Positions 5,877-17,561 of a DNA stretch of 64,000 nt are shown here, piece after piece (the stretch's first letter is position 1; the number at the start of each line of letters is the position of its first letter). A model generated the notes under the pieces. That model did not search any database. It was not told the origin of the DNA and saw only the letters and a program-made list of their open reading frames with translations. Location of the stretch: positions 1-64,000 of the IMG/VR virus record IMGVR_UViG_3300025121_000045; one strand, written 5' to 3'. Position numbers and translations under genes: made by a program. This DNA comes from a virus.

Positions 5877-6286
5877 TGACAACACATAAAGTTATGTTGG
5901 TCGAAGACCGTCCTCAAGACATGAGGTTAACTGTTAGAGCTTTAAAAAAAGCTGGGTATGACGTTGATGTTGTTATGGCAAGCCATGGCAAAGAAGCTGT
6001 TGATATGTTAGATGCGGGTTCTAACCCAGATTTAATTCTTCTAGATTGGAGATTACCGATCATGTCGGGAGAAGAAGTATTAAAGTATGTACGATCAAAA
6101 GAAAACATGAATATCATACCTGTAATAGTATTAACCACCAGTAGTGATTCCGAAGATGTTGATGTTGCGTATAGATCCGGGTGTAATGCATATCTCACTA
6201 AACCTGTAAACACTACAGAGTTTGACGACACAATCGAGGCTTTGGGGTTGTTCTGGCTTAAGAAAGTAATTCTACCTAAAAGATAA
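5876..6286 (+). CDS. CheY-like response regulator receiver
   Basis: This 136-aa single-domain receiver has the acidic pair E10-D11, phospho-acceptor D57 in LILLDWRLP, switch threonine T87 in VLTTSS, and K109 in LTKP. All active-site residues are present, so phosphorylation is expected. There is no output domain. It overlaps the downstream histidine kinase by one base and is the likely phosphotransfer partner. Short receivers of this kind pair with phytochrome-type or PAS kinases in bacteria. Confidence 0.93.
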   Translation: MTTHKVMLVEDRPQDMRLTVRALKKAGYDVDVVMASHGKEAVDMLDAGSNPDLILLDWRLPIMSGEEVLKYVRSKENMNIIPVIVLTTSSDSEDVDVAYRSGCNAYLTKPVNTTEFDDTIEALGLFWLKKVILPKR

Positions 6287-8568
6287 TGATAATGAAACAA
6301 TTTAGAATATTGATAGTACTCCTACTAACATCTTTATTTTTAGGTTATGGAACTTTGGGGTTATATAACATTCAATGGTTCTCTAATAGTATAAGCCCTT
6401 TCTGGGCTCTCGCATTAATTTATATAAGTGGTACTTTATCTTTTTTCACATACTCTGCTATATCAGTCCAAATAATTTATCTCACAAGAAAATATAAATC
6501 CGAGATAGGTAAGAGCAATACCTGGGTCTTAATTTTCTTAGCTTTATTCTTATTTTTGTGTGGTGTTGGACATTTTATAGACGCTACATATATATCTAAC
6601 AGGTCAGTAGACAGTATAAAAGCACTTGGTAAAGTAGCAGCCACTCTTACGACGTTGACAACAGCACTTTTATTTTGGCCACTAGCAGTAGCTGGAGTAA
6701 ATGCTTTTTATGCGCTTAAGAAAGAGCGAGACTCTTATGAATACGAAGCTTTTAGATGGACGAACCTTCCTGGTACTCTCATGGCTACTCAAAAATTACA
6801 AGACCCTAATGGATGTTATTTATGGGTCAATAAAGAATGGGAGACCTTATTAGGATGGACTAGTGAAGAAATGGCCTCAAGACCTTGGAGAACGTTTGTA
6901 CATCCTTCGGATGTACCTATCTGTTCGAATATAGATGGATCAAAGATAGCTTTACCTACGTGCATGTCTGGGTACTTGATTAGATACAGACATAAGGTAG
7001 ATAATCAAGATGGGAGTCCTAGATGGGTATGGACTAGATGGGACGCGGTAGCGTTCCAAAGCACAGGACTGGTATATGGTAGTGCTAGAGATGTAACGGA
7101 TCAAATAGAGGCATCTAGAGAAGCTAATATAACCAGAGCTCACTTAGATAACTGGCTTACAGTCTTTCCAGATTTATTGGTGACTGTAATTTTAGACGAC
7201 ACACCAGTAGAAAAGAAAAGATATTTATGGGTAAGTCCATCTTGCGAAAATTTACTAGGCTGGACCCCGGAAGAGCTAAAGGATGTTACCCTTGTCTCTT
7301 TAATACATCCAGAGGATTTTAATAGTTTCTTGAAAGAATATGCACGGTATGATAACCAATCAGAGGATAGGGTATCCAAGATCACTTTTAGACAAAGAAT
7401 AAAGCATAAGAATGGGGAGTGGAGATGGATAGAGTGGTCCGGTGTTTCTGACCATGATCTCAAAATGACTTATAATGTAGGCCGCGACATAACTGAAATG
7501 GTACATAGACAACAGTCTTTAGAGATGTCAGAAAATAGATTTAAGTCTGTCATGCACAATGCTCCTATAGGGTTAGCCCTTATATCTATAGATGGAAGAT
7601 GGTTAGATATAAATTTTTCTTTGTGCAGTATTGTTGGGTATGCTCAACAGGACTTATTAAAAAAGTCTTTCACAGAAATAACACACCCTTTAGATCTTAA
7701 TACGGACAAAGAGTTGATAAAAGATTTGATATCTAGAAAAATATCAAAATACCAAATAGTGAAAAGATGCATACATAAAAAAGGCCATATTATAACACTA
7801 GACATAAGCACGAGCCTGGTTTGGACTGGCGATATACCCCAACATTTTATATTACAGGTTAGAGACCTAACTGAAGAAGTTAAACAACAAGAAGAAATAG
7901 AAAGTCACATTAGAGACCTGGAACAGTTCGCTTCAGTAGCTGCTCATCAATTAAAATCTCCACCTAGAACCATATATGGTATGGCTCAAGCCTTGTTAGA
8001 AGACTATGGCAATGTAATAGGAACTGATGGAAAAGTGTTTCTAGAAGACATAAAACAAGATGCTGAAAACATGGCAGAAGTAGTAGACGGTTTATATAGG
8101 TTCTCTAAGGTACGTACATCTAGCGATATTGAAAAAGAAAATGTTGATTTGAATAAGGTTATTAATGCTATCTGTTCTGTACGTAAAGAGCAAAGTAAAA
8201 GTATCTCTGTAAAGGTACTAAATGTGTTACCAATAATAACCTCAAATAAGATACTGATACAAGAAGTGTTCTATAATCTCATAGACAATGGGTTAAAGTT
8301 CAATAGTTCAGAAGAACCTTCAATAGAAATAACTTCTGAAGACGCGGAGTACAGCCATGTCATATCCGTGAAAGATAATGGCATCGGAATACCTCGGGCC
8401 TATTATCCTAAATTGTTCAAAATGTTTGAAAGATTACACCCTACTTATCCAGGTACCGGTGTAGGACTTTCAGTAGCCGCTTCTATAGTTCAGAAACTAG
8501 ATGGAAAAATAGAAGTAGAATCAGAGCCTGGACAAGGTACTACATTTATTCTATATTTTCCGAAATAA
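6286..8568 (+). CDS. Membrane PAS-domain sensor histidine kinase
   Basis: This 760-aa kinase has four predicted membrane segments in residues 8-137. LCGVGHFIDATY near 91-102 resembles ethylene-receptor-type transmembrane sensors. Three PAS/PAC units follow at about 155-275, 285-405 and 415-535. The kinase core has the H-box FASVAAHQLKSP with His554, N-box YNLIDNGLKF near 663, G1 DNGIGI near 697 and G2 GTGVGLS at 723-729. It is complete and apparently functional. Together with the receiver it forms a phage-encoded two-component system. ATG 6292 is an alternative start. Confidence 0.93.
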   Translation: MIMKQFRILIVLLLTSLFLGYGTLGLYNIQWFSNSISPFWALALIYISGTLSFFTYSAISVQIIYLTRKYKSEIGKSNTWVLIFLALFLFLCGVGHFIDATYISNRSVDSIKALGKVAATLTTLTTALLFWPLAVAGVNAFYALKKERDSYEYEAFRWTNLPGTLMATQKLQDPNGCYLWVNKEWETLLGWTSEEMASRPWRTFVHPSDVPICSNIDGSKIALPTCMSGYLIRYRHKVDNQDGSPRWVWTRWDAVAFQSTGLVYGSARDVTDQIEASREANITRAHLDNWLTVFPDLLVTVILDDTPVEKKRYLWVSPSCENLLGWTPEELKDVTLVSLIHPEDFNSFLKEYARYDNQSEDRVSKITFRQRIKHKNGEWRWIEWSGVSDHDLKMTYNVGRDITEMVHRQQSLEMSENRFKSVMHNAPIGLALISIDGRWLDINFSLCSIVGYAQQDLLKKSFTEITHPLDLNTDKELIKDLISRKISKYQIVKRCIHKKGHIITLDISTSLVWTGDIPQHFILQVRDLTEEVKQQEEIESHIRDLEQFASVAAHQLKSPPRTIYGMAQALLEDYGNVIGTDGKVFLEDIKQDAENMAEVVDGLYRFSKVRTSSDIEKENVDLNKVINAICSVRKEQSKSISVKVLNVLPIITSNKILIQEVFYNLIDNGLKFNSSEEPSIEITSEDAEYSHVISVKDNGIGIPRAYYPKLFKMFERLHPTYPGTGVGLSVAASIVQKLDGKIEVESEPGQGTTFILYFPK

Positions 8569-10286: not shown

Positions 10287-10360
10287 GGGTCCATAATTCA
10301 ATGGAAGAATCTCCGGCTTTTAACCGGATTACCTCGGATCAATACCGAGTGGACCCACCA
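10287..10360 (+). tRNA. tRNA-Lys (anticodon TTT)
   Basis: Acceptor GGGTCCA pairs with TGGACCC, then A and encoded CCA. The anticodon stem TCCGG/CCGGA holds loop CTTTTAA. First gene of the tRNA cluster. Confidence 0.9.
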
Positions 10361-10367
10361 AATTAAT

Positions 10368-10447
10368 GGGGTTGTAGCCTAGAGGCCAGGCATCTGACTC
10401 TTAATCAGCGGCGTAAGCCAACGCAGGTTCGAATCCTGCCAGCCCCA
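10368..10447 (+). tRNA. Class II-like tRNA with Lys anticodon CTT
   Basis: Acceptor GGGGTTG pairs with CAGCCCC. The T-arm GCAGG-TTCGAAT-CCTGC is perfect. The anticodon loop is CTCTTAA on a 4-bp stem. The variable region of 13 nt contains the small stem GGC-GTAA-GCC, unusual for a lysine acceptor. The tail is A-CTA, not encoded CCA. Confidence 0.75.
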
Positions 10448-10490
10448 CTAAAAAGATACAAAAAGTATCTGAGAAAAGAGACTAAGTAAT

Positions 10491-10540
10491 CGTTACTATG
10501 ATGTGAACGTGACATAAACCAAAACACGGAGCGCATCATG
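10491..10540 (+). promoter_or_regulatory. CGTT motif plus hairpin containing the start codon
   Basis: CGTT at 10491-10494. TATGATG at 10497-10503 pairs with CATCATG at 10534-10540, which includes ATG 10538. CGGAG is in the loop. Confidence 0.45.
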
Positions 10541-10750
10541 AACGGCATTAAGGTTGGCTACCGGGCGAGTGGTAAGAAAATTCAGGATTATGCAATCATC
10601 CTGTTTTCAATGTTGTTTGTGCAGGAGTTCGGTATGACAGCCGGACTGGTATTTGGTGGAATGTGTGTGATCCTTGTGTGTGTTGTATATTACCAACTCG
10701 GCAAAGAACACAATCCGTTCCGTGATATGAAACGTAAACTGACTCGATGA
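10538..10750 (+). CDS. Small membrane protein, 70 aa
   Basis: Two hydrophobic segments are visible at about residues 18-32 and 33-52, followed by a basic C-terminal tail. CGGAG is a good ribosome site. It lies between tRNA genes and its function is unknown. Confidence 0.65.
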   Translation: MNGIKVGYRASGKKIQDYAIILFSMLFVQEFGMTAGLVFGGMCVILVCVVYYQLGKEHNPFRDMKRKLTR

Positions 10751-10755
10751 AATAT

Positions 10756-10839
10756 GGGTGTGTTGAGCAGGTGATGGGCTCATCTGGCTGTAAACCAGAC
10801 TCTTCGGACGTGTAGGTTTGATTCCTTCCGCACCCACCA
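10756..10839 (+). tRNA. tRNA-Tyr (anticodon GTA)
   Basis: Acceptor GGGTGTG pairs with CGCACCC, then A and CCA. Loop CTGTAAA and a class II variable arm are as expected for bacterial tRNA-Tyr. It follows the membrane-protein gene by 5 nt. Confidence 0.85.
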
Positions 10840-10863
10840 ATTTTAATGTTTAAGAGGAGTATT

Positions 10864-10986
10864 GTGGAAGTTCCATACACTGGGAAATGTGCAAAAGAGC
10901 AGGAAAAGCGCCGTCGCAGGCTGTATGCGGATACTCCTCGGCGCTTTGTTTCTGGAAAGAAAAACCTCGGTGCAAAGGGGCTTTGA
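10864..10986 (+). CDS. Small basic protein, 40 aa, frame open past TGA
   Basis: A GTG start follows AGGAG at good spacing. The peptide is Arg/Lys-rich. After the TGA at 10984-10986 the same frame stays open for 22 codons (an acidic segment) to TAA 11053-11055. It could be a truncated gene or a readthrough case. Confidence 0.45.
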   Translation: MEVPYTGKCAKEQEKRRRRLYADTPRRFVSGKKNLGAKGL

Positions 10987-11092
10987 ATCCTTGCCTCTGA
11001 AAAAGAGGTAGAAAAAATTGCTCTTCAGGATCTTAATAACATAGATCTTGATTAACGAAAGGCTTTTGGTTATTGTTTAGTATAGTAACGAT

Positions 11093-11167
11093 GGCTCCGT
11101 GGTATAAAGAATGTGCACCGATCTTCTAAATCGGATTATAAAGGTTTGAGTCCTTTCGGAGTCACCA
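11093..11167 (+). tRNA. tRNA-Arg (anticodon TCT)
   Basis: Acceptor GGCTCCG with CGGAGTC, loop CTTCTAA on CCGAT/ATCGG, encoded CCA. Matches the heavy AGA usage of the genes here. Confidence 0.88.
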
Positions 11168-11177
11168 GCAAGGAGCA

Positions 11178-11211
11178 CGATTTAGAGAAAGCTATAGATT
11201 TTTCTAAATCG
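11178..11211 (+). repeat. 13-bp hairpin between two tRNA-Arg genes
   Basis: 11178-11190 pairs with 11199-11211 (one G-T wobble) across an 8-nt loop. A smaller GTCGG/CCGAC hairpin follows at 11212-11228. Not a terminator by sequence; may be an RNA-processing element or tRNA debris. Confidence 0.5.
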
Positions 11212-11264
11212 GTCGGTAGAAGGCCGACGCAACACGGTGCGATAATTCGTGGAATCTTTTAAAT

Positions 11265-11341
11265 GCGCTTGTAGCTCAATTGGATAGAGTACTGGTCTTC
11301 TAAACCGGGGGTTGCAGGTTCGAAACCTGCCAGGCGCACCA
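11265..11341 (+). tRNA. tRNA-Arg (anticodon TCT), second copy
   Basis: Acceptor GCGCTTG with CAGGCGC, T-arm GCAGG/CCTGC, loop CTTCTAA, encoded CCA. The sequence is clearly different from the copy at 11093. Confidence 0.88.
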
Positions 11342-11533
11342 TATAGCAGAAAAAGGCGAAGTACAAGCTGGAGGAGTTGAAGTTCATTGGCGGTTTAGGT
11401 TATGTTTATTACGCTGGCGTTAACCGACGTGTAATAAATGGGTTCGAATCCCTTGCTAGGTCGCAAGCCCAGCAAATGCCGCTTCAACGAATCACTGCTA
11501 TTTTGATTTTAAAAATCAAGTTGTGTAATATGT
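11342..11533 (+). other. Unassigned structured, tRNA-like intergenic segment
   Basis: It contains GTTGAAG...CTTCAAC arms, a TTTATTAC/GTAATAAA hairpin, a GGG-TTCGAAT-CCC T-arm-like stretch, and a TTGATTTT/AAAATCAA inverted repeat just before tRNA-Val. I could not fold it into a convincing tRNA. An open frame across it runs into tRNA-Val and is not believable. Confidence 0.4.
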
Positions 11534-11608
11534 GGCCGAGTATATCAAAGGAAGATGGCCTCTCTTACAAAGAGGAGGTAGCGGGATCAATACCCGCCTC
11601 GGCTACCA
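11534..11608 (+). tRNA. tRNA-Val (anticodon TAC)
   Basis: Acceptor GGCCGAG with CTCGGCT (one G-T), anticodon stem CCTCT/AGAGG with loop CTTACAA, T-arm GCGGG/CCCGC, encoded CCA. Confidence 0.85.
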
Positions 11609-11610
11609 AA

Positions 11611-11646
11611 TAGGCTACAGAAGTTCGATTCTTCTATCGCCTACCA
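11611..11646 (+). pseudogene. tRNA relic: acceptor and T-arm only
   Basis: TAGGC pairs with GCCTA around the T-arm AGAAG-TTCGATT-CTTCT and ends in CCA. The D and anticodon arms are absent. It looks like an internally deleted tRNA or a minihelix. Confidence 0.6.
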
Positions 11647-11663
11647 AGTTTATTTTAGTTTAT

Positions 11664-11740
11664 CCGACCGTCATCCAATCCGGTTAAGATGCCGTGCTGA
11701 TAACGCGGTCATGGAGATTCAAATTCTCCCGGTCGGACCA
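11664..11740 (+). tRNA. tRNA-Ile (anticodon GAT)
   Basis: Acceptor CCGACCG with CGGTCGG, loop CTGATAA on CCGTG/CGCGG, T-arm GGAGA/TCTCC, encoded CCA. The next base after CCA begins the HNH gene's ATG. Confidence 0.85.
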
Positions 11741-12340
11741 ATGTCTGCTGTAATAATAAAAATGGGGTCTCGAAAACATATTAAAGAAGCCTTAGTTGAA
11801 GCTATGGGCGGAAAATGCTCTGTTTGTGGCTATAATAATACTTTAGAAGCTTTATGTTTTCATCATGTTGACCCAAAACAAAAAACTTTCAATTTTGGGT
11901 CTTATCATGTTTTGAATTTTACGAAATTCAAAGAAGAGATGTTAAAGTGTGTTCTCTTATGTTGTAGATGTCATTCAGAAATACATTCTGGTTATATTCC
12001 GCAAGAAAAGGTATTAGAAATATATAAGCCGGAAATTTATAAAAATATTGTATTGCAAGAACGTAAAATAGTCAGAAACTGTCCTATAATTAATTGTAGA
12101 ATATGTGATACTGAATTTCAAACTACTAGTAATGGACAAAAATATTGTAGTAATAAATGCAGCTCTATATCCAGTAGAAAATTTGAAATTTCAAAAGAAA
12201 AATTAGAAGGGCTTGTGAATACTAAACCCTTAATAAAGATAGGTAACATGTTTGGTGTTTCAGAAGCAGCAATACGTAAAAAGTGCGAGGTTTATGGTAT
12301 TCTTTACAAGAAACGAGACTTGAATAAAACACAAACATAA
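11741..12340 (+). CDS. HNH homing-type endonuclease in tRNA cluster
   Basis: This 199-aa protein has HNH core CSVCGY, ALCFHHVDP, LLCCRCHSEIHSG, a second zinc pair (CRICD, CSNKC) and a C-terminal helix-turn-helix-like tail (FGVSEAAIRKKCEVYGILYKK). It is a close paralogue of the proteins at 12525 and 14352. Its ATG 11741 abuts the CCA of tRNA-Ile; ATG 11762 is an alternative. No good ribosome site is visible. A tRNA 3' fragment follows its stop, consistent with insertion into tRNA DNA. Confidence 0.85.
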   Translation: MSAVIIKMGSRKHIKEALVEAMGGKCSVCGYNNTLEALCFHHVDPKQKTFNFGSYHVLNFTKFKEEMLKCVLLCCRCHSEIHSGYIPQEKVLEIYKPEIYKNIVLQERKIVRNCPIINCRICDTEFQTTSNGQKYCSNKCSSISSRKFEISKEKLEGLVNTKPLIKIGNMFGVSEAAIRKKCEVYGILYKKRDLNKTQT

Positions 12341-12344
12341 AAAT

Positions 12345-12373
12345 CAAAGGTTCAACTCCTTCTCGTCGCACCA
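12345..12373 (+). pseudogene. tRNA 3'-end fragment
   Basis: The T-loop TTCAACT between AAGG and CCTT, followed by a 3' acceptor-like strand TCGTCGC, then A and CCA. No matching 5' half is nearby. It lies directly after the HNH stop. Confidence 0.6.
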
Positions 12374-12380
12374 AGATTTA

Positions 12381-12427
12381 CGACATAAAGGGTTTAGAGT
12401 TGACCTTATGTCGATTATAACAACTCT
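12381..12427 (+). ncRNA. tRNA-leader pseudoknot, copy A
   Basis: Stem 1 is 8 bp (12381-12388 with 12406-12413). Its loop contains AGAGTTG (12396-12402), which pairs with CAACTCT (12421-12427), giving an H-type pseudoknot. Stem 2 ends exactly 2 nt (TT) before the first base of tRNA-Lys at 12430. Copies B and C have the same geometry with different stem sequences. Confidence 0.72.
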
Positions 12428-12429
12428 TT

Positions 12430-12503
12430 GGGTCCATAGTTCAATGGTAGAACATCTGGCTCTTAACCAGACTACGAAAGTTCGATTCTTTCTGGACCCA
12501 CCA
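12430..12503 (+). tRNA. tRNA-Lys (anticodon CTT)
   Basis: Acceptor GGGTCCA with TGGACCC, loop CTCTTAA on CTGG/CCAG, T-arm GAAAG/CTTTC, encoded CCA. Preceded by pseudoknot A. Confidence 0.9.
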
Positions 12504-12524
12504 ATGTTTTTAATGTGGTAATGA

Positions 12525-13262
12525 ATGGTTTGTATAAAGTGTGGGTTAAATTTCCCTCATCTCTTGATGATAAAAGGTAGACAAGAAGATTTAAGTAATA
12601 GGGTATATTGTTTATCTTGTTGTCCTTTTGGTATTAAAAATATTAGAGATTTCGTAGATCCTTTAAATGAAGAAACAGAAGTTGAAATAGATTTTAGAGG
12701 AACATTTAAACGAGCTTTAGTAATAGCTATGGGTAACAAATGTGCCATATGTGGTTACAAGGCTACAATACAAGCTTTATGTATTCATCATATAGATCCG
12801 TCCAAGAAAACATTTAGTTTTGGATCCTATAATGTGTTGAATTTCGAAAAATATAACTTGGAGATGAAAAATTGTTTGTTATTATGTCTTAATTGTCATT
12901 CAGAAATACATTCTAAACATATCCCAGAAGAAAAAGTTTTAGAAGTGTATAAGCCAGAGTTGTATAAAACTTTGGTCGCTAAGAAAAGACTTTTAAAAAA
13001 GGTTTACCCTATAGTAGATTGCAAAGTTTGTAATAAACAATATCAACCTTCTACGGGAAACCAAAAGTATTGTTCTAATGAATGTCAAAGTATCGGTAAG
13101 AAGAAGTTTGACATAACAAAAATAAAATTGGAACTCTTAATAAGAGAGAAACACCCTGTAGAAATAGGGAAGTTATTTAATGTATCAGAAGCAAGTGTAA
13201 GGAAAAGATGCGAGAAATATGGAATTTCATATAAAAAGAAATACATGAAAGTCAGAAATTAG
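12525..13262 (+). CDS. HNH homing-type endonuclease, paralogue
   Basis: This 245-aa protein has an N-terminal zinc cluster (CIKCG, CLSCC), HNH core CAICGY, ALCIHHIDP, LLCLNCHSEIHS, a second CxxC pair (CKVC, CSNEC) and the same C-terminal FNVSEASVRKRCEKYGISYKK tail as its neighbours. It lies 21 nt after tRNA-Lys and 4 nt before tRNA-Ile. The extra N-terminal finger distinguishes it from the copy at 11741. Confidence 0.87.
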   Translation: MVCIKCGLNFPHLLMIKGRQEDLSNRVYCLSCCPFGIKNIRDFVDPLNEETEVEIDFRGTFKRALVIAMGNKCAICGYKATIQALCIHHIDPSKKTFSFGSYNVLNFEKYNLEMKNCLLLCLNCHSEIHSKHIPEEKVLEVYKPELYKTLVAKKRLLKKVYPIVDCKVCNKQYQPSTGNQKYCSNECQSIGKKKFDITKIKLELLIREKHPVEIGKLFNVSEASVRKRCEKYGISYKKKYMKVRN

Positions 13263-13266
13263 ATAT

Positions 13267-13344
13267 GTGACGGTGGCCAAGTCTGGTTAAGGCTCTGTGC
13301 TGATAACGCAGAAACCGGAGGTTCAAATCCTCCCCGTCACACCA
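13267..13344 (+). tRNA. tRNA-Ile (anticodon GAT), second copy
   Basis: Acceptor GTGACGG with CCGTCAC, loop CTGATAA on CTGTG/CGCAG, T-arm GGAGG/CCTCC, encoded CCA. Confidence 0.88.
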
Positions 13345-13351
13345 AGTTTTA

Positions 13352-13397
13352 GACGTACAAGGTTTAGGGTTGACTGTACGTTGAATATAACAACCCT
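13352..13397 (+). ncRNA. tRNA-leader pseudoknot, copy B
   Basis: Stem 1 ACGTACA (13353-13359) with TGTACGT (13375-13381), plus a G-T wobble outside. The loop segment AGGGTTG (13366-13372) pairs with CAACCCT (13391-13397). Two T bases separate it from tRNA-Lys at 13400. Compared with copy A, an A-T pair in stem 2 has become G-C and stem 1 is wholly different yet paired. Confidence 0.72.
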
Positions 13398-13399
13398 TT

Positions 13400-13476
13400 G
13401 GGCAGGTAGTTCAACAGATTAGAATGTCGATCTCTTAAATCGAAAGATGTGGGTTTGACTCCCACCCAGCCCACCA
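13400..13476 (+). tRNA. tRNA-Lys (anticodon CTT), another copy
   Basis: Acceptor GGGCAGG with CCAGCCC (one A-A mismatch), loop CTCTTAA on TCGAT/ATCGA, T-arm GTGGG/CCCAC, encoded CCA. Confidence 0.82.
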
Positions 13477-13492
13477 AGTATTGGAGTTTAGA

Positions 13493-13882
13493 GTGTTATT
13501 ACATAGAAGCACAGTAGATGCATGTATTAAAGCCTTAGAGGCTTATAGTGAATCTTTAAAGGGTGTTGAAAGAGATCATATTATAGGGTTGATATGTGAG
13601 CTAGAAGGAGAAGCTTCTAACATGGGTCATATATCTTATGATCCTACGTATCCAGATTTTGTGGAAACAAAATGGGGTTATGAAGTTAGTTTGGACACGG
13701 TAGGGCCAAACGTTGTTCAAGTAATGAAATTAATAAGAGAAACAGTTGGTTTAGAACTACAAAAGCTACAGGCAATGATACGTAGTGTACCCGCAATTCT
13801 TTTATCCGAAATGAGTAAAGAAGACGCGGAATGTATAAAGCAAAAGTTTGAAGCTGTTGGGGCTACAGTATCTTTTAAGTGA
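13493..13882 (+). CDS. Protein with ribosomal bL12 C-terminal-type domain
   Basis: GTG 13493 follows GGAG at 6-nt spacing; the in-frame TTG 13481 lacks one. The 129-aa product ends (about residues 70-129) in a sequence matching the bL12 (L7/L12) C-terminal domain: VMKLIRETVGLELQKLQAM, then VPAILLSEMSKEDAECIKQK and AVGATVSFK. That domain recruits translation GTPases on the ribosome stalk. The N-terminal part is not the usual bL12 dimerisation domain. Phage-encoded bL12 is reported in some large phages. It sits within the tRNA cluster, consistent with a role in translation. Confidence 0.75.
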   Translation: MLLHRSTVDACIKALEAYSESLKGVERDHIIGLICELEGEASNMGHISYDPTYPDFVETKWGYEVSLDTVGPNVVQVMKLIRETVGLELQKLQAMIRSVPAILLSEMSKEDAECIKQKFEAVGATVSFK

Positions 13883-13941
13883 GTCCATATTCCATCTAAA
13901 TAATGGATCTTTTGTTCCGTGTATATAACATGGAGGACGTT

Positions 13942-14103
13942 ATGGAAGAAAAAGCTAGATTGGTATGGTGTAAAGGTACTTGGCCAGAAGACAATTATGA
14001 GGATTTTAAGGTTTTCCAGGTTCGTCCAGATGAAACTGACGAAGATGCCTTTAAACGGGCAGAGGAAGCGTATAGCGTAGAGAATGAGTTTTATATTAAG
14101 TAA
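13942..14103 (+). CDS. Small acidic protein, 53 aa
   Basis: GGAGG lies 5 nt before ATG 13942, which is preferred over the in-frame ATGs at 13903 and 13930. The protein is acidic with aromatic residues and has no recognised domain. tRNA follows 5 nt after its stop. Confidence 0.6.
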   Translation: MEEKARLVWCKGTWPEDNYEDFKVFQVRPDETDEDAFKRAEEAYSVENEFYIK

Positions 14104-14108
14104 TATCT

Positions 14109-14193
14109 GGGGTCGTGGTATATCGGCTGTACACCGGACTTTTAATCCGTGACCGAAAGGTCTAGGTAGGTTCGACTCCTACCGGCCCAACCA
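14109..14193 (+). tRNA. Class II-like tRNA with Lys anticodon TTT
   Basis: Acceptor GGGGTCG with CGGCCCA gives six pairs and a G1-A72 mismatch; then A and CCA. Loop CTTTTAA on a 4-bp stem. The long variable arm GACC-GAAA-GGTC is class II-like, as in the tRNA at 10368. Confidence 0.72.
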
Positions 14194-14202
14194 TGTTAAT
14201 TT

Positions 14203-14278
14203 GGGTCCTTAGCTCAGCAGGTAGAGCATCTGGCTTTTAACCAGAGGGTGCCCGGATCAAGACCGGGAGGACCCACCA
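14203..14278 (+). tRNA. tRNA-Lys (anticodon TTT), class I
   Basis: Acceptor GGGTCCT with AGGACCC, loop CTTTTAA on TCTGG/CCAGA, T-arm CCCGG/CCGGG, encoded CCA. Confidence 0.9.
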
Positions 14279-14314
14279 AACTTGTCTTATGTTATTTTTG
14301 CACTAATGTTTTTG

Positions 14315-14352
14315 TATAAATCCTCATATGTAAATTAATTTGAGGATTTATA
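14315..14352 (+). promoter_or_regulatory. 12-bp start hairpin of an HNH gene
   Basis: Perfect stem 14315-14326 with 14341-14352 (14-nt loop). The 3' arm carries GAGG and its last base is the A of ATG 14352. Same architecture as at 9185-9216. Confidence 0.65.
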
Positions 14353-15095
14353 TGAGAATTAGAACAAGTCCTATATGGGATCTTCCAAAAGAAGAGTTTG
14401 AGTCTTTAGTAGCAAAGAGTGAAACTTTTACAGCAATATTAGCTCATGTTGGATTACGAAATATCGGCCATAATTGGAAAACTCTAAGAACCCGACTTTT
14501 AGAAGATGGAATAGACTTTAGTCATATAGGTACTGGTCGTACTTGGGCAAAAGGTAAATTTTTTAGAAGAGCTTCAAATGAAGAAGTTTTTGTAAAAGGT
14601 CCTGGTTACGGCAAAAGTCATATAAAAGAAAGAATAATAAAAGAAAACCTATTATCATATATATGTGCTAATTGTAAACTAGAGCCAGTTTGGAATGGTG
14701 AAAAATTAGTTTTGCATTTAGACCATATTAACGGTGACGGAACTGATGACAGATTAGAGAATTTAAGATTTTTATGTCCTAACTGTCACAGTCAAACAAA
14801 AACTTATACAGGTAGGAATAAAATACTAGGAAGGCATGTTCCAAAATATTGTATAGATTGTAATAAACAGGTATCTCATAATCAATATGATAGATGTTTT
14901 TTATGTTCTCAAAAATGGAGAGGTTTAACACAGAGAAAATTTGACCCCTCAAAAGAGGAGTTAGAAAATTTAGTAAAGTCTAATTCTATAATAGACATAG
15001 GATTGATGTTTAATGTGTCTGAAGCTGCTGTAAGGAAAAGATGTGAGCTTTTAGGCATACTGTATAAGAAAAAAGATTTAAAAATGCGCCTCTAG
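14352..15095 (+). CDS. HNH homing-type endonuclease, third paralogue
   Basis: This 247-aa protein has an N-terminal region unlike its paralogues (SPIWDLPKEEFESLVAKSE), then the HNH core CANCKLEP, LHLDHINGDGTDDRLENLR, LCPNCHSQT, a CxxC pair (CIDC, CFLC) and the shared C-terminal FNVSEAAVRKRCELLGILYKK tail. Its last ten bases are also the first ten of tRNA-Arg(ACG), so the coding end overlaps a tRNA. Start as described by the hairpin at 14315. Confidence 0.87.
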   Translation: MRIRTSPIWDLPKEEFESLVAKSETFTAILAHVGLRNIGHNWKTLRTRLLEDGIDFSHIGTGRTWAKGKFFRRASNEEVFVKGPGYGKSHIKERIIKENLLSYICANCKLEPVWNGEKLVLHLDHINGDGTDDRLENLRFLCPNCHSQTKTYTGRNKILGRHVPKYCIDCNKQVSHNQYDRCFLCSQKWRGLTQRKFDPSKEELENLVKSNSIIDIGLMFNVSEAAVRKRCELLGILYKKKDLKMRL

Positions 15096-15161
15096 CTCAA
15101 CGGATAGAGCAAGGGTTTACGAAGCCCAAGACGGTGAGTTCAATTCTCCCGAGGCGCTCCA
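15086..15161 (+). tRNA. tRNA-Arg (anticodon ACG)
   Basis: Acceptor GCGCCTC with GAGGCGC, T73, CCA. Loop TTACGAA on AGGGT/GCCCA (imperfect ends), T-arm GTGAG/CTCCC imperfect. The first 10 nt overlap the HNH coding end. Confidence 0.82.
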
Positions 15162-15185
15162 GACGATTATATTAAGACCTCGTCC

Positions 15186-15233
15186 TAACATCAGAACTAT
15201 AAGGTTGGCCTGATGTTAAGTATTTTCAACTTT
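15186..15233 (+). ncRNA. tRNA-leader pseudoknot, copy C
   Basis: Stem 1 TAACATCAG (15186-15194) with CTGATGTTA (15210-15218), 9 bp perfect. Loop AAGGTTG (15201-15207) pairs with CAACTTT (15227-15233), one G-T wobble. Exactly two T bases precede tRNA-Arg at 15236. Confidence 0.7.
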
Positions 15234-15235
15234 TT

Positions 15236-15310
15236 GGACCATTAGCTCATCGGACAGAGCAACTGCCTTCGAAGCAGAAGAGGGGTGTTCAATTCACCCA
15301 TGGTCCTCCA
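15236..15310 (+). tRNA. tRNA-Arg (anticodon TCG)
   Basis: Acceptor GGACCAT with ATGGTCC, T73, CCA. Loop CTTCGAA on CTGC/GCAG, T-arm GGGTG/CACCC. Confidence 0.88.
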
Positions 15311-15533: not shown

Positions 15534-15827
15534 ATGTACCAGATTCCATCTCATTCATCTGACCAAGAGCAGAGTAAAAATCCTCGAACAGCTAAATATA
15601 AGTGTGCTCGAGTTTACCTCAATGGGGACATTATTAGGTCATATTGGGACGATGGCATTGAAGATTGGGTAGAATACAATTCTACCTTTAGGTTTGGGAA
15701 CGCTCTGTTTGTTAACGGAGAATGTGTCCGAAATGGTTATCTCTCAGAAGACAGATGTAAAGAGTTAGAGATTCAATTTCGTACAGAATTAGGTCTCCTA
15801 ACAGAACACATCTTTTCCGTAAGCTGA
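15534..15827 (+). CDS. Hypothetical protein, 97 aa
   Basis: ATG 15534 lies 6 nt after AAAGG and is preferred to ATG 15528. The middle YLNGDIIRSYWDDG suggests a small beta domain; no family recognised. Its coding end runs into what looks like a decayed tRNA. Confidence 0.55.
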   Translation: MYQIPSHSSDQEQSKNPRTAKYKCARVYLNGDIIRSYWDDGIEDWVEYNSTFRFGNALFVNGECVRNGYLSEDRCKELEIQFRTELGLLTEHIFSVS

Positions 15828-15853
15828 GAGTTCGAATCTTCCTGGACCCGTCA
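15823..15853 (+). pseudogene. Decayed tRNA 3' half, Lys-like
   Basis: Contains TTCGAAT T-loop and the acceptor strand TGGACCC of the Lys tRNAs here, followed by G-TCA. Upstream AGAACACATCTTTTCC loosely resembles the D/anticodon region of tRNA-Lys but lies inside the coding frame. Confidence 0.5.
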
Positions 15854-15913: not shown

Positions 15914-16261
15914 ATGAATTTAATTTCTAAAGAAATAAAACAGTTATCACAAGTTATTAAGAATTCTAATCACACAAAGGTTTCATCATGGATGCGTGAA
16001 CCTGGTCCTGATCCGTATTGTTGGATGAGGATTATTGTAGGAGGGAATCCGAAATCTTTAGAAGATAGGGTGGCTTTTTGTGAAAAAAGCCCAAGAATTA
16101 GGGTAGCCCCTTTTACAACACATTCTGAAGAAAGTGACAAGTGGAAATTTGGACCAAAAGGCGGCTATGATGATGCCGAAAATTTAGAGTGGTGTGATAT
16201 AGAGCTTAAAAAATTAGGTTATGTTATTACGGATACCACTATACCAGATGAGTGTAGTTAA
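15914..16261 (+). CDS. Hypothetical protein, 115 aa
   Basis: A soluble protein with Trp/Cys-containing motifs but no recognised family. AAGGA precedes ATG. A 7-bp tri-loop hairpin (15883-15899) sits just upstream, outside the ribosome site. Confidence 0.6.
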
Positions 16262-16295
16262 GAATCCATATTGTGTGTCACTACTTGAGGTAGAC

Positions 16296-17561
16296 ATGTT
16301 AGATGTACGTTTCGTTGTAGAACATACAGATAAGATTATAGAGAATCTTAGAAAAAGACATACAGATTTTAATTTAACTCATCTCCTGAACCTCTTTAGT
16401 CTTCATAAAAACACCCTTCACAAGTTAGAGATGCTCAAAACTGACCGTAACAGGTTAGCTTCCGAGATAGGCAGACTTAAAATACAGAAACAAGACACGA
16501 CTATTCTTCAAGAACATGCTAGAGAATTAGGAAACGACATCAAGTCTTTTGAGATTGACTGTAAAGACTTGGCGGATAGGCTACATTCTCAAGTTTTGTT
16601 ACTGCCTAATCTATTGCAAGACACCGTGCCAGACGGCGTTGACGCTAACGACAATGTGTTAGTACGTACTTGGAATACCCCTACAGCATTTACCTTTACT
16701 CCAAAGGCCCACAACGAGATTGGGGAGGGTTTAGGTATTATAGATTTCCAAAGAGCGGCCAAGATTTCTGGGTCCCGGTTTGCCGTCCTACGAGGAGCGG
16801 GAGCTGCTCTAGAACGAGCTTTGATAAATTTATTCTTAGATACACATATAAGACACGGGTACCAAGAAGTTATGGTTCCATATCTTGTCAATGCCACTAC
16901 TATGACAGGTACAGGTCAACTCCCAAAATTTGAGGAAGACTTATTCAAAATACAAGGATCTGACCTGTACCTAATACCGACTGCAGAGGTCCCGGTCACC
17001 AATCTACATGCAGGAGAGATTTTAGCAGAAGATGGCCTACCCCTCAGGTATTGTGCTTTTACCCCATGTTTTAGAGCAGAAGCCGGTTCGCATGGACGCG
17101 ATGTAAAAGGTTTGATCCGTCAACATCAATTCCATAAGGTAGAGCTGGTACAGTTTGCACATCCAGACCAATCTCGAAATATTCATGAAGAATTAGTTAG
17201 GTATGTTGAGTGTTTGTTAGAGCTGCTTCAACTACCATACAGGACTATGCATTTATGTGCGGGTGATACAGGCAATGGGTCTTCTAGGACATACGACATA
17301 GAAGTATGGATGCCTGGACAGAATCAGTATAGGGAGATATCCTCTTGTTCTAATTTTCTAGATTATCAGGCACGTAGAGCCAATATCAGATTTAGACCTA
17401 AAGTCGGTGGTAAACCTAGATATGTACATACCCTGAATGCTTCTGGTTTGGCCATAGGCCGAACTATGGTGGCTATCTTAGAAAACTATCAACAAGAAGA
17501 TGGGTCTGTCATAGTTCCAGAAGTTTTAAGACCTTATATGCATATGGATGTCATAAAATGA
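16296..17561 (+). CDS. serS: Seryl-tRNA synthetase
   Basis: This 421-aa class II synthetase has full bacterial length. It begins [14 protein letters not shown], then a charged antiparallel coiled-coil arm (about 25-100). Motif 2 is [21 protein letters not shown] and motif 3 is [17 protein letters not shown]. It would charge tRNA-Ser with serine. ATG 16296 matches the family start and follows GAGG by 5 nt; the frame opens further upstream but that segment overlaps the previous gene. No tRNA-Ser is visible here. The next gene overlaps its stop (ATGA). Confidence 0.95.

What the first reader, a model, noticed from the sequence alone, without database searches (positions are those of the whole stretch)
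12381..15233. Three covarying H-type pseudoknots placed exactly 2 nt upstream of tRNA genes
Copies at 12381-12427, 13352-13397 and 15186-15233 have different stem-1 sequences (CGACATAA, ACGTACA, TAACATCAG) that each pair perfectly. Stem 2 covaries (AGAGTTG/CAACTCT, AGGGTTG/CAACCCT, AAGGTTG/CAACTTT). Loops have similar lengths. In all three, TT separates stem 2 from base 1 of the tRNA. Compensatory change plus constant spacing argues for a selected RNA structure, perhaps guiding 5' processing by RNase P, blocking 5' exonucleases, or self-cleaving. I do not recognise it as a named motif.
Basis: seen in the sequence. Interest (0 to 1): 0.9.

Follow-up and report, generated by a model that had tools for sequence, protein, structure and literature searches.

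The report
Pseudoknot RNAs fused to phage tRNAs
Three short knotted RNAs sit 2 bases in front of tRNA genes in this phage, and many unrelated phages carry different knotted RNAs, or a known toxin-neutralising RNA, in the same spot, so phages may use tRNA maturation to release small RNAs aimed at host defences; that function is inferred, not shown.

Summary
Three H-type pseudoknots end exactly 2 nt before tRNA genes. They are homologous copies: 8 of 16 base pairs carry a change on both sides, 97.9% of cells pair, and slid controls reach at most 39%. They match no Rfam family. A model of them finds only these three copies in the 72.8-kb record and in 0.8 Mb of phage tRNA loci.

The fold-plus-position is not private, though. 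In 1152 tRNA leaders from 171 phage contigs, sequence-unrelated H-type pseudoknots ending within 10 nt of the tRNA are about tenfold over shuffles (24 vs 2.55). They recur in named mycobacteriophages (Wildcat, PegLeg, Reindeer, Nanosmite), in one case with strong stem-2 covariation and conserved loops. A small bacterial set shows none at score 30 or more (0 of 123).

The known RNA antitoxin abiF uses the same slot in phages. Of 90 distinct abiF-type RNAs, 77 lie 3-9 nt before an ARAGORN tRNA and 8 more before a tRNA-like half, although most belong to one phage lineage.

Best explanation: small protein-binding RNAs whose 3' end is cut by RNase P, probably counter-defence. Structure and position are shown; excision and function are inferred.

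The parts
12381..12427 (+). Pseudoknot copy 1: S1 12381-12388/12406-12413, S2 12396-12402/12421-12427
12428..12429 (+). TT spacer between copy 1 and the tRNA
12430..12503 (+). tRNA-Lys(CTT) directly downstream of copy 1
12346..12372 (+). 3' half of a former tRNA (T-arm and CCA), resembling the tRNA-Ile at 13267; upstream flank of copy 1
   Evidence: weak Rfam tRNA match 12340-12370, model 42-71, 12.7 bits
13352..13397 (+).
13398..13399 (+). TT spacer between copy 2 and the tRNA
13400..13476 (+). tRNA-Lys(CTT) directly downstream of copy 2
13267..13344 (+). tRNA-Ile(GAT), upstream flank of copy 2, 7 nt away
15186..15233 (+). Pseudoknot copy 3: S1 15186-15194/15210-15218, S2 15201-15207/15227-15233
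15234..15235 (+). TT spacer between copy 3 and the tRNA
15236..15310 (+). tRNA-Arg(TCG) directly downstream of copy 3
15086..15161 (+). tRNA-Arg(ACG), upstream flank of copy 3; 24 nt containing GACGA..TCGTC lie between it and the pseudoknot
11711..12340 (+). HNH-type endonuclease ORF, upstream unit of copy 1 (no Pfam match of its own; family assigned by alignment with its neighbours)
12525..13262 (+). HNH-type endonuclease ORF, upstream unit of copy 2 (51% identical to the previous one)
14340..15095 (+). HNH homing endonuclease ORF, upstream unit of copy 3
   Evidence: PF01844; PADLOC homing endonuclease 2.4e-15

Best explanation
Each element is a small structured RNA of about 50 nt carried in the 5' leader of a phage tRNA gene. 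Shown here: the pseudoknot fold is supported by covariation, the spacing to the tRNA is fixed, and many other phages have an H-type pseudoknot, or the antitoxin RNA abiF, in the same position. Inferred: the RNA is transcribed with the tRNA array; RNase P cleaves at tRNA base 1 and so makes its 3' end, leaving a 2-nt tail after stem 2; its 5' end comes from 3' processing of the upstream tRNA or tRNA remnant. Inferred with less certainty: the released RNA binds a host protein, as abiF RNA and type III antitoxin pseudoknots do, and neutralises a defence nuclease, so that the tRNA array doubles as a store of counter-defence RNAs that homing endonucleases help to duplicate and move.
For: Covariation in the three copies. 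Phage-wide enrichment of sequence-unrelated H-type pseudoknots in the same slot: strict survey 24 vs 2.55 shuffled in 19 contigs; the excess is confined to the first 15 nt upstream and shows the expected geometry, L1 shorter than L3 in 18 and longer in 0 at score 30 or more. Bacterial tRNA leaders 0 of 123 at score 30 or more against 33 of 1241 phage leaders (small sample). Orthologous slots keep a pseudoknot while sequence turns over: Thr leader of PegLeg, Skinny, Reindeer and Nanosmite has four of five S2 pairs changed on both sides with loops kept; Gln leader has one S1 pair changed on both sides with loops identical; Asn leader holds different pseudoknots in PegLeg, Reindeer and Nanosmite, Trp leader in Wildcat and EniyanLRS. 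abiF RNA: all 3 above-cut-off hits in the first 50 phage records lie 3-5 nt before a tRNA; in cyanophage S-CREM1 it lies 4 nt before tRNA-Gly; in a pattern scan made without regard to tRNAs, 77 of 90 lie 3-9 nt before an ARAGORN tRNA and 8 more before a tRNA-like half. No Abi_2 toxin gene was found in those three records or in the complete S-CREM1 genome. AbiF RNA is a proven antitoxin whose stem tolerates compensatory mutations (PMC12373285). T4 carries stable rnaC and rnaD in its tRNA cluster.
Against: No expression or processing data. The window's pseudoknots match neither abiF nor ToxI, have longer stems than the Clostridia ToxN-linked repeats that I read by eye, and have no toxin gene beside them. 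Simple hairpins are also enriched in the slot, so part of the signal may be a general wish for structure there. Of the 94 abiF-tRNA contigs, 83 fall into one nucleotide-level cluster. About 3 of the 24 strict hits look like decayed tRNA T-arms. The link from abiF to the pseudoknots is by analogy of position only.
Confidence: 0.45

Rival explanations
1. The pseudoknot acts in cis on tRNA maturation: it folds the spacer into a compact unit so that it cannot mispair with the tRNA, sets the RNase P cleavage, or blocks exonucleases at the cut ends.
For: Constant spacing next to base 1; different sequences of the same fold at the same tRNA; plain hairpins also enriched in the slot; for copy 2 the leader disturbs the predicted tRNA fold when the pseudoknot is left out.
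Against: Most tRNAs in the same arrays lack such an element; loops, not only stems, are conserved in orthologues; the bacterial leaders sampled lack it; abiF RNA, an antitoxin, uses the slot; a rigid fold 2-4 nt away would seem to hinder the leader contacts of the RNase P protein (general knowledge).
Confidence: 0.3
2. The pseudoknot guards the 3' end made by RNase P: with a 2-4-nt tail it stops 3' exonucleases and protects the upstream RNA, with no partner protein.
For: Tail lengths mostly 2-5 nt, shorter than what 3' exonucleases need (general knowledge); sequence matters little in some slots.
Against: Mature tRNAs need no such guard; conserved loops; several elements lie 8-10 nt away.
Confidence: 0.12
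3. A DNA-level or transcription element: promoter, terminator or homing site of the neighbouring HNH nucleases.
For: TTGAC-N10-TATAAC occurs in copies 1 and 2; HNH genes sit in each unit and one replaces a pseudoknot slot in phage Cosmo.
Against: Spacing 10 is wrong for sigma-70 and no promoter or terminator was called there; a DNA site does not explain paired changes in two interleaved helices or the sense-strand geometry in other phages.
Confidence: 0.06
4. A self-cleaving ribozyme or riboswitch aptamer.
For: Pseudoknots are common in both.
Against: No Rfam family matches; no invariant core is shared with the other phage leaders.
Confidence: 0.05

Closest known systems
abiF RNA (Rfam RF03085), antitoxin of AbiF HEPN toxins
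   Same: Short structured RNA; in phages it stands 3-9 nt before a tRNA gene; stems vary while the core is kept
   Different: 37 nt, described as a hairpin, with a conserved core absent from the window elements; no Rfam match here
Type III antitoxins (ToxI, RF02519; TenpI, CptI) and the ToxI mimic of phage PhiTE (PMC3475682)
   Same: Small H-type pseudoknot RNA; a phage-borne antitoxin mimic is already known
   Different: Tandem repeats beside a ToxN-family toxin; no Rfam ToxI match; no toxin here; no tRNA link
T4 stable RNAs rnaC and rnaD
   Same: Small stable non-tRNA RNAs in a phage tRNA cluster
   Different: 119-139 nt, at the downstream end of the cluster, function unknown
manA, wcaG and skipping-rope RNAs of phages
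   Same: Structured RNAs inside phage tRNA arrays (S-CREM1 manA abuts tRNA-Asn; skipping-rope in L183)
   Different: Larger, conserved families; manA and wcaG were described as candidate 5' UTR riboswitches (PMC2864571)

Membership tests
Type III toxin-antitoxin RNA (ToxI/TenpI/CptI) | RNA unit folds as an H-type pseudoknot | tested here: met
Type III toxin-antitoxin RNA (ToxI/TenpI/CptI) | Match to the ToxI model RF02519 | tested here: not met
   best in G000 0.29, elsewhere in the record
Type III toxin-antitoxin RNA (ToxI/TenpI/CptI) | Tandem repeats directly upstream of a ToxN-family toxin | tested here: not met
   Single copies, 1-2 kb apart; no PF13958 in the record (the same search rings in 36 of 391 Clostridia)
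Type III toxin-antitoxin RNA (ToxI/TenpI/CptI) | RNA binds and neutralises an endoribonuclease | not testable with these tools
   needs experiment
abiF RNA (RF03085) | Score above the Rfam gathering cut-off | tested here: not met
abiF RNA (RF03085) | Placed a few nt before a phage tRNA (a feature found here, not part of the published definition) | tested here: met
   window elements 2 nt; abiF RNAs 3-9 nt
Phage tRNA-leader pseudoknots (class proposed here) | H-type pseudoknot ending 0-10 nt before a tRNA gene, helices covarying | tested here: met
Phage tRNA-leader pseudoknots (class proposed here) | Released as a stable small RNA by tRNA processing | not testable with these tools
   no RNA data held
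Self-cleaving ribozymes and riboswitches in Rfam | Family model match | tested here: not met

The most novel reading that the evidence does not exclude
Phage tRNA arrays are also arrays of counter-defence RNAs: pseudoknots and abiF-type antitoxins are fused to tRNA 5' ends and released by the host's own RNase P, an enzyme the host cannot switch off, giving each phage its own set of RNA inhibitors of RNA-targeting defence proteins.
Probability: 0.35. Interest if true: 0.93.

Novelty: new variant of a known kind. Interest (0 to 1): 0.78.

Why it matters
Why phages carry tRNA arrays is an old question. If structured RNAs travel as tRNA leaders, the arrays do more than supply tRNAs, and a simple rule (look 0-10 nt before phage tRNAs) would find new small RNAs and perhaps the defence proteins they block. 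The abiF result makes this testable at once with a known toxin and antitoxin pair. I found no paper describing the link between phage tRNA 5' ends and pseudoknots or abiF RNA, though subscription journals are mostly not held.

Tried and rejected
Sequence homologues of the three copies: DNA patterns in viral and genome contigs gave only chance hits or unrelated tRNA leaders; a covariance model of the copies (stem 1 only, as models cannot hold pseudoknots) found only the copies. Relatives through the seryl-tRNA synthetase were mostly bacterial genes in contaminated phage records and were dropped. The 727-aa helicase gave no close viral relative. Promoter idea: TTGAC-N10-TATAAC has the wrong spacing. 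My early reading that stem 1 is rewritten wholesale between copies was an alignment-register error; the alignment shows ordinary compensatory change. ToxI relationship: only noise, and the Clostridia ToxN-linked repeats have shorter stems by eye. Some survey hits are terminators (L249) or decayed tRNA T-arms (L168, L255, L282) and were discounted. The MAFFT alignment of the Asn leaders was too gappy to count pairs on; those three are compared only by eye.
Full report
What was checked. The window is bases 1-64000 of a 72,824-base virus record. Fourteen tRNA genes lie between 10287 and 15310, with three HNH-type endonuclease ORFs between them. Each has the order S1-L1-S2-L2-S1'-L3-S2'-TT-tRNA. 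A descriptor search on both strands of the window ranks them second to fourth on their own strand; comparable knots are expected about 0.47 times per 64-kb strand by chance, so three at exactly 2 nt from tRNA base 1 cannot be chance.

Covariation. On an alignment of the three copies, 46 of 47 cells form standard pairs, eight pairs carry a change on both sides, and sliding the partners by one to three columns drops pairing to 24-39%. Stem 1 has six such pairs of nine, stem 2 two of seven. Copies 1 and 2 belong to repeated tRNA-Ile/pseudoknot/tRNA-Lys units; in unit 1 only a tRNA 3' fragment (12346-12372) remains after the HNH gene. A nested fold with stem 1 and a short inner hairpin is also stable, so stem 2 stands on covariation.

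Not a named family. Rfam gives only tRNAs in the window at curated thresholds, and nothing relevant at permissive thresholds over the elements. A covariance model of the copies finds these three only, both in the record and in 0.8 Mb of phage tRNA loci.

The slot is used by many phages. I collected phage loci by an HNH homologue search and by a DNA pattern for tRNA pairs with a spacer, neither of which asks for pseudoknots. Among 1152 distinct leaders from 171 contigs, 24 hold an H-type pseudoknot of score 28 or more ending within 10 nt of the tRNA, against 2.55 (at most 6) in dinucleotide shuffles. The excess lies in the first 15 nt upstream and vanishes beyond. Loop geometry is that of real H-type knots, with a short L1 and a longer L3. 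About three of the 24 look like decayed tRNA arms. In a bacterial control 0 of 123 leaders reach score 30, against 33 of 1241 phage leaders; the control is small, and at 2.7% about three would be expected, so the phage-bacteria contrast is only suggestive.

Named phages. Mycobacteriophages of the Wildcat and Bongo/Rey groups carry several. The Thr leader of PegLeg, Skinny, Reindeer and Nanosmite keeps loops GAC, A and CTTAGCGGCGAAC almost unchanged while four of five stem-2 pairs change on both sides. The Gln leader shows one compensatory pair in stem 1 with identical loops, too little for a firm claim alone. The Trp leader holds different pseudoknots in Wildcat and EniyanLRS, and the Asn leader in PegLeg, Reindeer and Nanosmite. 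In phage Cosmo an HNH gene replaces the Lys pseudoknot slot.

A known antitoxin in the same slot. Rfam marked an abiF RNA three bases before a tRNA in L120. Of 50 phage records searched, three had an abiF RNA above cut-off, all 3-5 nt before a tRNA; 50 further records had none above cut-off. In cyanophage S-CREM1 the published abiF RNA (PMC9964418) lies 4 nt before tRNA-Gly, which the passages I read do not remark on. Most (83 of 94 contigs) form one nucleotide cluster, so independent support is about ten lineages. None of the three records, nor the complete S-CREM1 genome, has an Abi_2 toxin gene, so these look like orphan antitoxins. AbiF RNA is a demonstrated antitoxin whose stem can be changed if pairing is kept (PMC12373285).

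Mechanism. Shown: fold, spacing, recurrence, shared slot with abiF. Inferred: release by RNase P, protein binding, counter-defence. Phage tRNAs are already known as anti-defence agents that homing endonucleases amplify (PMC13096335), which fits tRNA-pseudoknot duplication beside HNH genes here. The main rival is a role in cis in tRNA maturation, which I cannot exclude: plain hairpins are enriched in the slot too, and different sequences of the same fold recur before the same tRNA.

Verdict. The exact family is private to this phage; the class is widespread in phages and, as far as the library searched shows, undescribed. I file it as a new variant of a known kind (small structured phage RNAs of the antitoxin sort) because the function is unproven.

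Noticed in passing
L444-L563, L393-L395, L408: abiF-type RNAs in viral contigs stand 3-9 nt before a tRNA gene in 77 of 90 distinct cases (8 more before a tRNA-like half), most often tRNA-Arg, usually first in the array, though most are one phage lineage.
   Followed up: yes
window 10287-15310: Six of 14 tRNAs are tRNA-Lys and four tRNA-Arg, isotypes that several anticodon nucleases attack; the set may be an anti-defence supply.
   Followed up: no
window 13481-13882: ORF with a ribosomal protein L7/L12 C-terminal domain (PF00542) directly behind a tRNA-Lys.
   Followed up: no
window 16221-17561: Phage-borne seryl-tRNA synthetase (PF00587, PF02403), about 50% identical to bacterial-type SerRS.
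   Followed up: partly
window 6286-8568: PAS-domain histidine kinase of 760 aa in a phage genome.
   Followed up: no
L120 14503-14827: A bacterial class A RNase P RNA (RF00010, 187 bits) within a phage tRNA array that also carries pseudoknot leaders and an abiF RNA.
   Followed up: no
window 11610-11645 and 15806-15852: Further tRNA 3' halves (T-arm and CCA-like end) without a 5' half: remnants of disrupted tRNA genes.
   Followed up: no
L015 (CAKLQH020000002.1): Record named Acinetobacter phage MD-2021a is bacterial chromosome in this stretch (sdh, gltA, rpoD, ribosomal protein genes).
   Followed up: no
L297 8565-8732 (phage Cosmo): An HNH gene occupies the Thr-Lys spacer where Wildcat and EniyanLRS have a pseudoknot.
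   Followed up: partly
L183 1708-1777: skipping-rope RNA (RF02924) in the same phage tRNA array as two pseudoknot leaders.
   Followed up: no
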